Part shown: piece after piece, positions 7,780 to 14,540 of the stretch
Layout: the number at the start of each line of letters is the position of its first letter
Position numbering within the stretch: position 1 is the stretch's first letter
Source: Acholeplasmataceae bacterium
Lineage (GTDB): Bacteria > Bacillota > Negativicutes > Acidaminococcales > Acidaminococcaceae
Length of the DNA: 52,092 nt
Assembly: GCA_012517145.1 (NCBI GenBank)
Contig: JAAYVM010000216.1
Location: forward strand, 1-52,092
Direction: 5' to 3'
Notes under the pieces: generated by a model
The model's input: the letters and a program-made list of their open reading frames with translations, nothing else
What the model was told of the DNA's origin: nothing
Database searches by the model: none
Made by a program: the position numbers and the translations under genes

Positions 7780-8160
7780 ATGAATAAGATGGTACAAGAT
7801 GTTCTTGCGTCCTTTAAGACAGTGCTCTTTCGTCATGCCTTCTTTTCGTTATGCATTGTATCTTTGGTTCTTTTTTCCCGAGGACTGGAAAGCGCGCTTA
7901 TTTGGGCCGCTGGTTGTGCCTGGGGATTTATTGATACGCTGATGATGTTTCGAGGCGTACGCAAAGGTATGACTATGGAAGGTGAGAAGTCGCTGCAGGA
8001 GATGCATCGAACTTTAATTAAAAGGCTTGCCTTTGCTGTCATGTTGGTTATGGTTATGTTAAAGTTGGGGCTCAGTGTTTTTGGTGTATTCATGGGCTTC
8101 ATACTGTCACATATATTTTTACTTTGCAATCTCATAATTATCGCGGGCCGCAAGAGATGA
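7780..8160 (+). CDS. atpI: ATP synthase subunit I (AtpI-like membrane protein)
   Basis: This small integral membrane protein of 126 residues has about four hydrophobic segments (roughly 18-33, 38-55, 83-101 and 103-122) and stands first in the ATP synthase operon. AtpI proteins act as assembly helpers for the c-ring or in Mg2+ handling and are weakly conserved, so the call rests mainly on position, size and topology. An AAGGA-type site precedes the ATG. The next gene, atpB, starts 31 bases on. Confidence 0.75.
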   Translation: MNKMVQDVLASFKTVLFRHAFFSLCIVSLVLFSRGLESALIWAAGCAWGFIDTLMMFRGVRKGMTMEGEKSLQEMHRTLIKRLAFAVMLVMVMLKLGLSVFGVFMGFILSHIFLLCNLIIIAGRKR

Positions 8161-8191
8161 TTCTCTGTTCGTGAAGAAAGGAGTGAACAAA

Positions 8192-8890
8192 ATGGAAATC
8201 GCTGAAGCATCTGGAAGTGGTATTATTCACTATTTGCCCACAGAAGTCTTTGACGGGGTAGTTATCAATATGCAGACCATGTATATGTCCTGGCTTACGA
8301 TGGCTGTGGTCGCTCTTATTGTTTTTGCGGCAACCCGTAAAGCAGAGATTATTCCTTCTGGAGTTCAAAACATTGTTGAAGTCTTCATTGAGTGGCTAAA
8401 TGGCTTGATGGAAGGCAATATGGGAATGGAAGGACGCCGCGCAGCCGCTCCCTTCATTATAACTCTTTTCCTTTACTTATTCGTCGGCAATGAGATTGGT
8501 TTGCTGCCGCAGGTTGGCGCACACTTTACTTCACCGACAAATGATATCAACGTTACACTTGGTATGGCTGTTACCGTGTCTTTTACGGTTTATGTTCTAG
8601 GTATCATGCGCAATGGTTTGGGCTATTTTAAACATTTTATTCAACCGTCATTTCTTTTCCTGCCATTGAATCTTTTGGAAGAAGTATCAAAACCTTTAAC
8701 CATGGCTTTACGTCTATTTGGTAATATTCTGGCCGGTGAAATTTTGCTTATTGTTCTTTATATGCTGGCACCTTGGGTTATTCCAGATTTATGGATTGGT
8801 TTCAGCTTGATCGTTGGCTTCCTGCAGGCTTTTATTTTTACAATGCTGACTATGATTGCCATCGCCCCTGTATTCAGGGCACATCACTAA
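8192..8890 (+). CDS. atpB: ATP synthase F0 subunit a
   Basis: The 232-residue membrane protein forms the stator half-channels that lead ions to the c-ring. The segment MALRLFGNILAGEILL contains the essential arginine of the a subunit, and the final helix around QAFIFTMLTMIAIAP is typical. ATG 8192 follows AAAGGAG at the correct spacing; the GTG at 8171 is upstream of that site. It is followed by a 92-bp AT-rich gap before the c-subunit gene. Confidence 0.95.
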   Translation: MEIAEASGSGIIHYLPTEVFDGVVINMQTMYMSWLTMAVVALIVFAATRKAEIIPSGVQNIVEVFIEWLNGLMEGNMGMEGRRAAAPFIITLFLYLFVGNEIGLLPQVGAHFTSPTNDINVTLGMAVTVSFTVYVLGIMRNGLGYFKHFIQPSFLFLPLNLLEEVSKPLTMALRLFGNILAGEILLIVLYMLAPWVIPDLWIGFSLIVGFLQAFIFTMLTMIAIAPVFRAHH

Positions 8891-8982
8891 TAGGTAAGGT
8901 ATATATTTTTACTTAGTTCAAATTAAAATTTATATAATTTGAAAAACAAAATTTTTTTAAAATCGAAAGGATGAATTTTAAA

Positions 8983-9237
8983 ATGACAGAAAATGCTATT
9001 ATCGTTACTGCTTCAGTATTTGCTTCTGCTATTATTGCAGTTGGTGCTTCACTTGGTGCTACAAAAGGAGATTCCGCCGTTGCTACTAAAGCTTTAGAAT
9101 GTATGGCTCGTCAACCGGAAGCTGCTTCCACTTTCCAAGTAAATATGCTTATTGCTATCGGTCTTGTTGAGTCTATTCCTATTATTTCCGCAGTTATTGC
9201 TATCGTTCTTGTCTTCGCTAATCCCTTTGTAAAATAA
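8983..9237 (+). CDS. atpE: ATP synthase F0 subunit c with Asp30/Glu63/Ser64 ion site
   Basis: This is an 84-residue hairpin of two membrane helices that oligomerises into the rotor ring. The loop ARQPEA is canonical. The ion-binding glutamate lies in GLVESIPII (Glu63-Ser64). Alignment on the loop places Asp30 where Ilyobacter tartaricus has Gln32. Glu-Ser is typical of Na+-binding rings, and a second carboxylate at the Gln32 position is the motif described for Fusobacterium nucleatum, there Glu rather than Asp. The helix-1 glycine repeat is degenerate (S-L-G-A-T-K-G-D-S), which could influence ring size. ATG 8983 is chosen over ATG 8971 because GAAAGG directly abuts the latter. Na+ coupling is inferred, not shown. 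Confidence 0.95.
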   Translation: MTENAIIVTASVFASAIIAVGASLGATKGDSAVATKALECMARQPEAASTFQVNMLIAIGLVESIPIISAVIAIVLVFANPFVK

Positions 9238-9902: not shown

Positions 9903-11753
9903 ATGGAAACTAATGAAAACTTTTCTTTGATCAGCGAAAGCTTGTCATCAATTGAGTTTGAACCAAAAGATCTCGAGCTTGTTGCTAACGAAGAATTAAT
10001 CACAGTGCTAGTTACCACTGCCAGAGATCTTGCTGTATCTGAATATGAATCTGTTTCCGTAATTCTGGCTGAAAAGTTAGGCAAAAAGGTTGAACTGCAA
10101 AAGATTGTTGATCCATCTATAATTGGCGGCATCATCGTTAAAATTGGCGACAAGGTTTTTGATGCAAGCTCCAAACGTCAACTTGAAAAAGTCGGCGGCT
10201 TGATGGGTAAAGTACAAGTCGGAGACCAATCTCTGGAAAAACCTGCAGGCATAGCTGAAGCCCTGACTAAAGAAGTTCAGGATTATAAAATAGATGTCGA
10301 TTTGGAAGAAGTCGGTGTTATTGAAAAAGTTGGTGACGGTATCGCAACCGTAACCGGCATGCGTGGCGTAATGGCGGGCGAACTGGTTGAGCTCCCTGGT
10401 GGCGTTAGCGGCATGGTACAAAATTTAAGACCTGATGAAGTTGGTATCGTTTTAATGGGTGGCGAGACCAAAATAAAACAAGGTGACGTGGTACGCCGTA
10501 CCGGTCGTATCATGGAAGTCCCTGTCGGCGAGAAAATGCTCGGCCGTATAGTTGACTCCCTTGGTGATCCTATTGATGGCAAAGGCGAAATCAAGCATGA
10601 AGCTGTACGTTGTATCGAAGCTCAAGCTCCTGGTATCGCTGACCGTAAATCTGTAGACGTTCCTCTTCAGACCGGTATTAAAGCTATCGATGCTTTGGTG
10701 CCAATCGGCCGTGGACAACGTGAGTTGATCATCGGCGACCGTGGTACTGGTAAAACTGCTGTTGCAGTTGACACCATCATCAATCAAAAAGGTTTAGGCG
10801 TTATTTGTATTTACGTTGCTATCGGACAAAAGACTTCTACTGTTGCCCGTATTGCTCGTACTTTGGAACAACATGGCGCACTTGCTTATACTATTATCGT
10901 AGCAGCTACTGCAGCTGACAGCGCACCGCTGCAATATCTTGCACCTTATACCGGCGTTACTATCGGTGAGTTCTTCATGGATCAAGGCAAAGATGTCCTT
11001 TGTATCTATGATGACTTGTCCAAACATGCCGTTGCTTATCGTGCAATGAGCTTGCTGCTTCGTCGTCCACCAGGCCGCGAGGCTTATCCTGGCGACGTAT
11101 TCTATCTACATTCCCGTTTGTTGGAACGTGCTGCAAGACGTAATGAGGCTGCAGGCGGCGGTTCGATTACGGCTCTGCCGATTATCGAAACCCTTGCAGG
11201 CGACGTCGGCGGTTATATCCCAACCAACGTAATTTCTATTACTGATGGCCAGATATTTCTTGAAAGCGAACTTTTCTACTCCGGTATCCGTCCTGCTATC
11301 AACGTAGGTCTCTCGGTATCCCGTGTAGGTGGTTCTGCGCAGATAAAAGCAATGAAATCTGTTGCTGGTACGCTCCGTCTTGACCTTGCACAATATCGTG
11401 AGTTGGCAGCTTTTGCTCAATTTGGTTCTGACCTGGATAAAGCGACCAAAGCACAGCTCGATCGTGGCGCACGTATGACTGAAGTTCTGAAACAAGGTCA
11501 ATATGCTCCGCTTCCGGTTGAAAAACAAGTAATGTCGCTTTATGCGGCTACAAAAGGTTATGTCGATGATATTCCTGTTCATGATGTAACTCGTTTCGAA
11601 AAAGAATTGTTGGCTTATCTTGCTGCCAATGCACCGGAACTCGGTGAATCAATCCGTACGGAGAAGAAAATTACTGACGAAACAGAAGCATTATTGAAAA
11701 AGGCTATTGTCGATTTCAAGGATACCTTTGCTATCACCGGCGAATCGAGGTGA
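9903..11753 (+). CDS. atpA: Fusion of ATP synthase delta C-terminal domain to alpha subunit
   Basis: The protein has 616 residues, about 100 more than a usual alpha subunit. Residues about 115-616 are a full alpha subunit: [18 protein letters not shown], Walker A GDRGTGKT at 278-285, and the segment [10 protein letters not shown]. Residues about 28-101 match the C-terminal domain of the delta subunit, with [43 protein letters not shown] and RQLEKV. In other synthases that domain binds the b stalk. The alpha-binding N-terminal domain of delta is absent here and upstream. GGAGGTGAT (9885-9893) sits nine bases before ATG 9903, with a stop in frame at 9894, so the fused start is genuine and no frameshift is needed. 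Met101 (10203) could be an internal start giving a 516-residue alpha. Its in-operon neighbours b, gamma, beta and epsilon are normal. Confidence 0.93.
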
Positions 11754-11759
11754 TGACTG

Positions 11760-12683
11760 ATGGCTACTCCACGCGAAATACGCAGGCATATGAAGAGCGT
11801 CAAAAACATCCAGCAGATTACTAAAGCCATGAAGATGGTTGCTGCCGCTCGTTTGCGCCGTGCGCAGGAAAAAGCTGCATCCAGTCGTCCATTCTCAGAA
11901 AAAGTTAAAGAGCTTTTAACTACTGCTGTCAGTGACAAGGCTACGATGAGAAATCTTGACTATTCAGAACATCCGCTTCTGCAGGAAAGACCTATTAAGC
12001 GTAGCGCATATATCGTTGTAAGTTCTGATAAAGGCTTAGCAGGCGCCTATAATGCCAACTTGCTGAAGCATGCTCTTGTTGAGTTAATGGACCAAGACGA
12101 TTATGTTCTGATTACTGTCGGCCGTAAGGCTAAAGATTTCTTCTCACGCCGTGGGTTTGATATCGAGGAATCTTTCTTTGGATTCTCAGATAAGCCGACC
12201 TATGATGATGCAGATGATGTTGCTTATTTAGCAAAAAAACTGTTTACATCCGGTGTTGTTGACGAAGTTATTCTGATTTATACTCAGTTTAAATCAGCAT
12301 TATCTTTTACACCGTTGTCCAAAAAGCTTTTACCTGTTGTGCCTCCGCAGGCCGGCGAAACAGCAGTAAATAATGAGCCTTTTGATGATGAACATGCTAA
12401 ACTTGCAGACAAAGATGAAGAAGCAGGCGACGTTATCTTCGAACCTACTGCAAGTGAAACATTGAAATATTTGGTGCCGTACTATGTTAAGACTATCATG
12501 TATGCTGCATTAATGCAGGCGGCAGCCAGTGAGTTGGGCGCACGTATGACAGCAATGTCTTCGGCGACAGACAATGCTAATGACTTGTTGAAGAGCCTGG
12601 AACTCTCCTACAATAAAGTGCGTCAAGCTGGTATAACCAGAGAAATTAATGAAATCGTTGGTGGAGCAGAAGCTCTGCAGTAA
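11760..12683 (+). CDS. atpG: ATP synthase F1 gamma subunit
   Basis: The rotor shaft of F1 has 307 residues, slightly longer than most. The N-terminal MATPREIRRHMKSVKNIQQI and the C-terminal SATDNANDLLKSLELSYNKVRQ, both ends of the coiled-coil shaft, are conserved. The surplus is an acidic insertion at about residues 200-225 (rich in Glu and Asp) in the globular domain. It begins six bases after the fusion gene. Confidence 0.95.
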   Translation: MATPREIRRHMKSVKNIQQITKAMKMVAAARLRRAQEKAASSRPFSEKVKELLTTAVSDKATMRNLDYSEHPLLQERPIKRSAYIVVSSDKGLAGAYNANLLKHALVELMDQDDYVLITVGRKAKDFFSRRGFDIEESFFGFSDKPTYDDADDVAYLAKKLFTSGVVDEVILIYTQFKSALSFTPLSKKLLPVVPPQAGETAVNNEPFDDEHAKLADKDEEAGDVIFEPTASETLKYLVPYYVKTIMYAALMQAAASELGARMTAMSSATDNANDLLKSLELSYNKVRQAGITREINEIVGGAEALQ

Positions 12684-12688
12684 AATAA

Positions 12689-14116
<1,428 letters not shown>

Positions 14117-14120
14117 TTGC

Positions 14121-14540
14121 ATGGCTAAATTAATGCAATTGGAAATTGTTACACCTGATAAATCGCTGATGAAAAGAAATGACGTTTCCTACGTGTTGGC
14201 AGAAACAGTTATGGGTCCAATTGGCATTTTGGCCAACCATGCTCCACTGATTGGCACGTTGAATGAATCTCCTTTGAAATATAGGAGTGAAGATGGAAAA
14301 GATCACTTCATTTTCATTGATGCCGGTTTTATGGAAGTTAACAATAATAAAGTCACTGTCCTCAGTGCTGCTGCAGAGATGTCTGAAAATATCGATGTAG
14401 CACGTGCACAAGCGGCAGAAGCCAGAGCTTTGAAGCATATTGAAAACCCGGAACCTACGATTGACCTTGAGGTTATCGGCAGGAACCTGCGTCGTGCAAA
14501 AGGACGACTCAAAACTGTGCAATTAGCCCGTGGCTTATAA
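14121..14540 (+). CDS. atpC: ATP synthase F1 epsilon subunit
   Basis: This 139-residue subunit has the N-terminal beta-sandwich (LEIVTPDKSL, GPIGILANHAPLIG) and a C-terminal helical pair (ARAQAAEARAL onward to the end). It couples gamma to the c-ring and can inhibit ATP hydrolysis. It closes the atp operon, with a strong terminator 14 bases past its stop. Confidence 0.95.
   Translation: MAKLMQLEIVTPDKSLMKRNDVSYVLAETVMGPIGILANHAPLIGTLNESPLKYRSEDGKDHFIFIDAGFMEVNNNKVTVLSAAAEMSENIDVARAQAAEARALKHIENPEPTIDLEVIGRNLRRAKGRLKTVQLARGL

What the first reader, a model, noticed from the sequence alone, without database searches (positions are those of the whole stretch)
8983..9237. c subunit with Asp30 plus Glu63-Ser64: variant two-carboxylate Na+ motif
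Alignment on the ARQPEA loop puts Asp30 at the Gln32 site of Na+-binding rings, with Glu63-Ser64 at the coupling site. A two-carboxylate rotor (Glu/Glu) is known from Fusobacterium nucleatum; here the first acid is Asp. The residue after Ser64 is Ile rather than Thr, so specificity is uncertain. The first helix has a degenerate glycine motif, which may alter ring size.
Basis: partly seen in the sequence, partly recalled or inferred. Interest (0 to 1): 0.62.

Follow-up and report, generated by a model that had tools for sequence, protein, structure and literature searches.

The report
Ordinary proton-type ATP synthase rotor subunit
The rotor subunit does carry two acidic residues in its ion site, but the same site (Asp, or interchangeably Asn) is found throughout this class of bacteria and most resembles the proton-driven rotors of mycobacteria; the unusual part of the same ATP synthase is the next-door fused delta-alpha subunit, which predicts an enzyme with several stalks.

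Summary
The c subunit (8983-9237) has Asp30 at the Gln32 site, Glu63-Ser64, Ile65, and a poor glycine motif (SGTGS against GGGGG in Ilyobacter). The sodium reading is not supported. The Thr67 and Tyr70 sites are Ile, and the Pro28 site is Ala. Five of seven ligand sites match the M. tuberculosis proton rotor (Asp28/Glu61), against two of seven for Ilyobacter. The best structural matches are mycobacterial rings. So "first acid is Asp" is not new. In 147 distinct relatives the site is always Asp (113) or Asn (34), never Gln or Glu, with at least 10 Asp/Asn changes on the tree. A second carboxylate so freely exchanged with Asn is best read as a permanently protonated hydrogen-bond donor, with Glu63 carrying the transported H+. 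The genome keeps a separate V-type ATPase whose K subunit has every Enterococcus Na+ ligand. More interesting is the same operon's alpha subunit (9903-11753): it begins with the delta C-terminal domain, the delta N-terminal domain is missing, and there is no separate delta gene. This matches an engineered "multi-stalk" enzyme, whose authors noted the natural fusion in Acidaminococcus fermentans. I find it family-wide, with a likely intermediate in a sister family and two other, apparently independent lineages.

The parts
8983..9237 (+). atpE, c subunit, 84 aa plus stop
8965..8971 (+). Shine-Dalgarno-like GAAAGGA supporting the start at 8983 rather than the in-frame ATG at 8971
   Evidence: read directly
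9064..9066 (+). Lys28 codon (Val30 site of Ilyobacter), lumen-facing by helical wheel
   Evidence: inference for orientation
9070..9072 (+). Asp30 codon, Gln32/Glu32 site, proposed permanently protonated H-bond donor
9169..9174 (+). Glu63-Ser64 codons, coupling carboxylate and neighbouring hydroxyl
9175..9186 (+). Ile65-Pro66-Ile67-Ile68: Thr67 and Tyr70 sites of Na+ rings both aliphatic
7780..8160 (+). probable atpI (no Pfam match at 1e-3; assigned by position and by comparison with relatives)
8171..8890 (+). atpB, a subunit
   Evidence: PF00119
9279..9764 (+). atpF, b subunit
   Evidence: PF00430
9903..11753 (+). fused delta(C-terminal domain)-alpha, 616 aa; delta part 9987-10193, alpha from about 10245
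11760..12683 (+). atpG, gamma
12689..14116 (+). atpD, beta
14121..14540 (+). atpC, epsilon

Best explanation
This is the c subunit of a proton-coupled F-type ATP synthase of an Acidaminococcaceae bacterium. Each hairpin offers one transported-ion site: Glu63 on the outer helix takes up and gives off H+ as the ring turns past the a subunit, while Asp30 on the inner helix stays protonated and donates a hydrogen bond to Glu63, doing the job that Asn does in many relatives and Asp does in mycobacterial rings; Ser64 adds an optional hydroxyl. Shown: residues, alignment, class-wide Asp/Asn exchange, loss of Na+ ligands. Inferred: protonation state and coupling ion. The ring belongs to an enzyme whose alpha subunit carries the delta C-terminal domain, so it may be contacted by more than one a subunit (inferred from an engineered homologue).
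For: Site by site the window matches M. tuberculosis at 5 of 7 ligand positions and I. tartaricus at 2 of 7. Among 148 distinct c subunits position 30 is D 113, N 34 and one outgroup I; position 65 is I/M/V/L in all but that outgroup and position 68 is I/L/M in all. D/N changed at least 10 times on an a-subunit tree (some of these branches are weakly supported, and 5 independent pairs remain on starred branches only). Foldseek's first 11 PDB matches of the predicted hairpin (pLDDT 94.9) are mycobacterial c chains; Na+ rings rank 24-27. An aliphatic residue at the Thr67 site marks H+ enzymes (PMC2359735). Schulz et al. argued that the second carboxylate is permanently protonated, equals Gln/Asn in effect, and expected the same of H+ enzymes such as M. 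tuberculosis (PMC3692424). Sporomusa and Acetonema synthases are tabulated as H+ (PMC8578096); Quinella is read as H+ despite a Na+ decarboxylase (PMC9585023). The same genome holds a V-type K subunit with all E. hirae Na+ ligands, identical, so Na+ has its own ATPase.
Against: No ion-binding data exist for this protein; the Sporomusa, Acetonema and Quinella assignments appear to be largely sequence predictions. Ser64 is kept in every Acidaminococcaceae sequence of the set (37 of 37), which a pure H+ site would not need. The genome has two Na+ decarboxylase beta subunits and an Rnf-type pair, so a Na+ gradient is probably made. Foldseek similarity of hairpins is a weak guide to ion type.
Confidence: 0.73

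Rival explanations
1. One reading: a variant two-carboxylate Na+ rotor in which Asp30, Glu63 and Ser64 hold Na+, as Glu32, Glu65 and Ser66 do in F. nucleatum.
For: Asp30 and Glu63-Ser64 are at the right sites; the minimal motif Q/E + E/D + S/T of PMC4715464 is nearly met; Na+ pumps are encoded.
Against: Thr67, Tyr70 and Pro28 sites are Ile, Ile, Ala; Asp is one carbon shorter than the Gln/Glu ligand; Ser64 is Ala in 36 class members that keep Asp or Asn; no Q or E at the site anywhere in the class set.
Confidence: 0.12
2. A promiscuous rotor that uses H+ under normal conditions and Na+ when Na+ is in large excess, as reported for Methanosarcina acetivorans.
For: Ser64 invariant in the family; PMC3692424 describes selectivity as graded.
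Against: A separate Na+-type V-ATPase is present; the water-binding Thr67 and the Tyr70 lock are missing.
Confidence: 0.13
3. Asp30 is ionised and salt-bridged to Lys28 of a neighbouring subunit rather than protonated.
For: Lys or Arg at 28 goes with Asp30 in 37 of 38 rows.
Against: Asp30 stands without a basic residue 28 in 73 rows; the association is not significant once relatedness is counted; 28 and 30 lie about 200 degrees apart on a helix; Asn replaces Asp freely.
Confidence: 0.04

Closest known systems
Mycobacterial c ring (M. tuberculosis 8j0s, M. phlei 4v1f), H+
   Same: Asp at the Gln32 site plus Glu in the outer helix; Ala at the Pro28 site, Leu at the Val63 site, Ile at the Tyr70 site; closest predicted fold
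   Different: Ser64-Ile65-Pro66 instead of Ala-Ala-Tyr after the Glu, so the bedaquiline contact residues listed in PMC5874750 are not kept; 28% identity
Fusobacterium nucleatum two-carboxylate c11 ring (3zk1), Na+
   Same: second carboxylate at the same site, Glu-Ser pair
   Different: Asp not Glu; no Thr67, Tyr70, Pro28; glycine motif broken
Other Negativicutes c subunits
   Same: Asp or Asn at 30, Glu63, Ser or Ala64, aliphatic 65 and 68
   Different: glycine motif mostly fuller (often AGGGG), position 28 usually hydrophobic
Engineered Bacillus PS3 deltaDeltaN-alpha FoF1 (9jc1; PMC12229609)
   Same: delta N-terminal domain absent and delta C-terminal domain fused to the alpha N-terminus; top PDB hit by sequence and by fold
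   Different: natural gene here, with about 30 extra N-terminal residues; number of stalks unknown

Membership tests
F-type ATP synthase subunit c (TIGR01260, PF00137) | hairpin with ARQP loop and outer-helix carboxylate, over curated cut-off | tested here: met
Na+-binding c rings (Ilyobacter type) | Gln/Glu at 32 plus Glu65 and Ser/Thr66 | tested here: inconclusive
   Asp30, Glu63, Ser64: 2 of 3 met, first one changed
Na+-binding c rings (Ilyobacter type) | polar residue (Ser, Thr, Gln, Arg) at the Thr67 site | tested here: not met
   Ile65; rule from PMC2359735
Na+-binding c rings (Ilyobacter type) | Tyr70 locking the glutamate | tested here: not met
   Ile68; never Tyr in 148 sequences
Na+-binding c rings (Ilyobacter type) | Na+ protection against DCCD, Na+ stimulation | not testable with these tools
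   needs the purified enzyme
Two-carboxylate c rings (Fusobacterium, Mycobacterium, Streptococcus pneumoniae) | second carboxylate at the Gln32 site plus the outer-helix carboxylate | tested here: met
   Asp30 and Glu63
Two-carboxylate c rings (Fusobacterium, Mycobacterium, Streptococcus pneumoniae) | second carboxylate permanently protonated | tested here: inconclusive
   Asp/Asn exchange at least 10 times agrees; no direct measurement
Mycobacterial-type c ring | Glu-Ala-Ala-Tyr outer-helix site (bedaquiline contacts) | tested here: not met
   Glu-Ser-Ile-Pro
deltaDeltaN-alpha fused FoF1 (PMC12229609) | delta C-terminal domain fused to alpha, delta N-terminal domain absent from the genome | tested here: met
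   OSCP positions 99-168 only, one match in the genome, 618-aa open frame
[quoted passage not shown]
   needs cryo-EM or stoichiometry

The most novel reading that the evidence does not exclude
The Asp/Glu rotor sits in a natural multi-stalk, proton-driven ATP synthase: because each alpha carries a delta C-terminal domain and the symmetry-breaking delta N-terminal domain is gone, two or three b2 stalks each hold an a subunit against one c ring, roughly doubling or tripling H+ per ATP so that ATP can be made at low proton-motive force. The design is fixed in Acidaminococcaceae, has passed horizontally to a Selenomonadaceae lineage, and arose separately in at least two other lineages of the phylum.
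Probability: 0.45. Interest if true: 0.82.

Novelty: new member of a known kind. Interest (0 to 1): 0.42.

Why it matters
For the c subunit the value is modest but concrete: the Asp/Asn exchange across a whole class is a natural test of the claim that the second carboxylate of such rotors is permanently protonated, and it warns against reading a second acid as a Na+ signature. For the operon as a whole the value is higher: an ATP synthase layout that was engineered in 2025 appears to be the normal enzyme of a family of gut anaerobes, some of them culturable (A. fermentans), so the predicted multi-stalk enzyme and its high H+/ATP ratio can be tested directly.

Tried and rejected
Alternative start at 8971: rejected because the Shine-Dalgarno-like site overlaps it. 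Correlated change of Asp/Asn30 with Ser/Ala64 and with Lys/Arg28: too few independent pairs to decide. Fusion-specific loss of the glycine motif: rejected, since sister families without the fusion also have broken motifs. Internal start giving a free alpha: start-like codons lie at residues 100, 101 and 134, but I saw no obvious ribosome site upstream of them and Met101 is not kept in every relative; not excluded. Ring size: no reliable sequence rule; not attempted. The predicted delta-alpha model is only moderate (pLDDT 68) and is used for fold matching alone.

Full report
OBSERVATION. Window 8983-9237 (+) encodes an 84-aa F-type c subunit, with atpB upstream and atpF downstream in a complete atp operon. 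What was not noted: Ile68 at the Tyr70 site, Ala26 at the Pro28 site, Pro66, and Lys28 two residues before Asp30. The glycine positions read SGTGS. The start at 8983 fits the Shine-Dalgarno-like GAAAGGA.

HOW UNUSUAL IS IT. I collected c subunits from named genome contigs, the window's family and its class, 148 distinct sequences. Position 30 is Asp in 113 and Asn in 34; the one exception is a betaproteobacterial outgroup. Gln and Glu never occur. Position 63 is Glu in all but the outgroup, position 64 is Ser (111) or Ala (37), position 65 is always aliphatic apart from the outgroup, position 68 is never Tyr. So the finding describes the standard site of the class, not a peculiarity of this genome.

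WHAT ASP30 DOES. On a tree of 143 a subunits, Asp and Asn change at least 10 times, including within the window's own family, where the Phascolarctobacterium branch has Asn (quick tree, many weak branches, but 5 independent pairs remain on starred branches alone). Asp and Asn share geometry but not charge. Repeated exchange with no other residue accepted fits a neutral, protonated Asp acting as hydrogen-bond donor to Glu63. Schulz et al. argued this for F. nucleatum Glu32 and expected it of H+ enzymes such as M. tuberculosis (PMC3692424). This is inference from evolution, not a measurement.

WHICH ION. Against Na+: the polar residue at the Thr67 site that all predicted Na+ enzymes share is Ile here, and an aliphatic residue there marks the predicted H+ enzymes (PMC2359735); Tyr70 and Pro28 are absent. 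The window agrees with M. tuberculosis at 5 of 7 site positions and with I. tartaricus at 2 of 7. The predicted hairpin (pLDDT 94.9) matches mycobacterial rings first, Na+ rings at ranks 24-27. Preiss et al. call proton rotors that keep elements of the Na+ motif the "mix" type (PMC2914638), which is where I would file this one. In the class, Sporomusa and Acetonema are tabulated as H+ (PMC8578096) and Quinella is read as H+ in spite of a Na+ decarboxylase (PMC9585023). For Na+: Ser64 is invariant in the family, and the genome encodes two Na+-decarboxylase beta subunits and an Rnf-type pair. But it also encodes a V-type K subunit in which every E. hirae Na+ ligand is identical (135 bits to 2bl2), so Na+ has its own rotary ATPase. 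I put H+ at 0.73, promiscuous at 0.13, Na+ at 0.12.

WHAT THE NEIGHBOURHOOD SHOWS. There is no separate delta gene. ORF 9903-11753 (616 aa) carries the C-terminal part of the OSCP/delta family (positions 99-168 of 172, 57.7 bits, cut-off 22.3) in front of a complete alpha, and the genome has no other OSCP match. The best PDB hit of the N-terminal stretch, by sequence and by fold, is the engineered delta-alpha fusion 9jc1. Ueno et al. (PMC12229609) removed the delta N-terminal domain of Bacillus PS3 and fused the rest to alpha; [quoted passage not shown] They noted the same fusion in A. fermentans and two UniProt entries and predicted a natural multi-stalk enzyme, so the fusion itself is known.

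What I add. (1) In the family every OSCP match over the cut-off (50 of 59 genomes) is the delta C-terminal part in front of alpha; two of them (G002, G042) align further upstream only by reading through stop codons, and their loci show the same fused ORF; some frames are cut by contig ends. (2) All 28 genomes checked from 21 other families of the class have a full, separate delta. (3) A sister family of the same order (G059, locus L212) has delta (192 aa), then a free-standing 110-aa delta C-terminal gene, then an ordinary 511-aa alpha, with overlapping stop and start codons: a plausible intermediate by duplication, then fusion, then loss of the full delta. (4) A genome coded in another family of the class (G146; named relatives L019, L020 are Selenomonadaceae) carries the fusion and its a subunit nests inside the Acidaminococcaceae, which suggests horizontal transfer of the operon. 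(5) Two other lineages of the phylum have the fusion too: f51 (3 of 3 genomes) and f78 (6 of 6), the latter beside a second operon with a normal delta; in the genome read out (G319) that second operon has a Na+-type c subunit (Gln, Glu-Thr-Ser) while the fused operon has an Asp/Glu c subunit. I call these independent from their scattered taxonomy; I did not build an alpha tree. No paper beyond PMC12229609 turned up on natural multi-stalk enzymes.

LIMITS. Coupling ion, protonation state, ring size and stalk number are all untested. The a-subunit tree is a short search. Several literature assignments of ion type are themselves predictions.

Noticed in passing
window 9903-11753: delta C-terminal domain fused to alpha, no delta N-terminal domain and no separate delta gene in the genome; matches the engineered multi-stalk FoF1 (9jc1, PMC12229609). 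Present in all Acidaminococcaceae with an OSCP match over the cut-off, absent from 28 genomes of 21 other families of the class.
   Followed up: yes
L212:2093-4532 (coordinates on the - strand; G059): Sister family of the same order has full delta (192 aa), an extra 110-aa delta C-terminal gene and normal alpha in overlapping order: a likely evolutionary intermediate.
   Followed up: partly
L232, L233, L234, L236, L237: Separate delta-alpha fusions in two other lineages of the phylum; one genome (G319) also has a Na+-type F-ATPase operon with a normal delta.
   Followed up: partly
L020, L100 (G146): Genome of another family of the class whose atp operon, fusion included, nests inside Acidaminococcaceae: apparent horizontal transfer.
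   Followed up: partly
window 9064-9066: Lys28 in the middle of the inner helix, lumen-facing by helical wheel; Lys or Arg there in 38 of 143 rows (37 of them with Asp30). A ring of buried basic residues in the lumen is odd.
   Followed up: partly
G000:C8 (L001, L217): V-type ATPase K subunit with the complete E. hirae Na+ ligand set in the same genome.
   Followed up: yes
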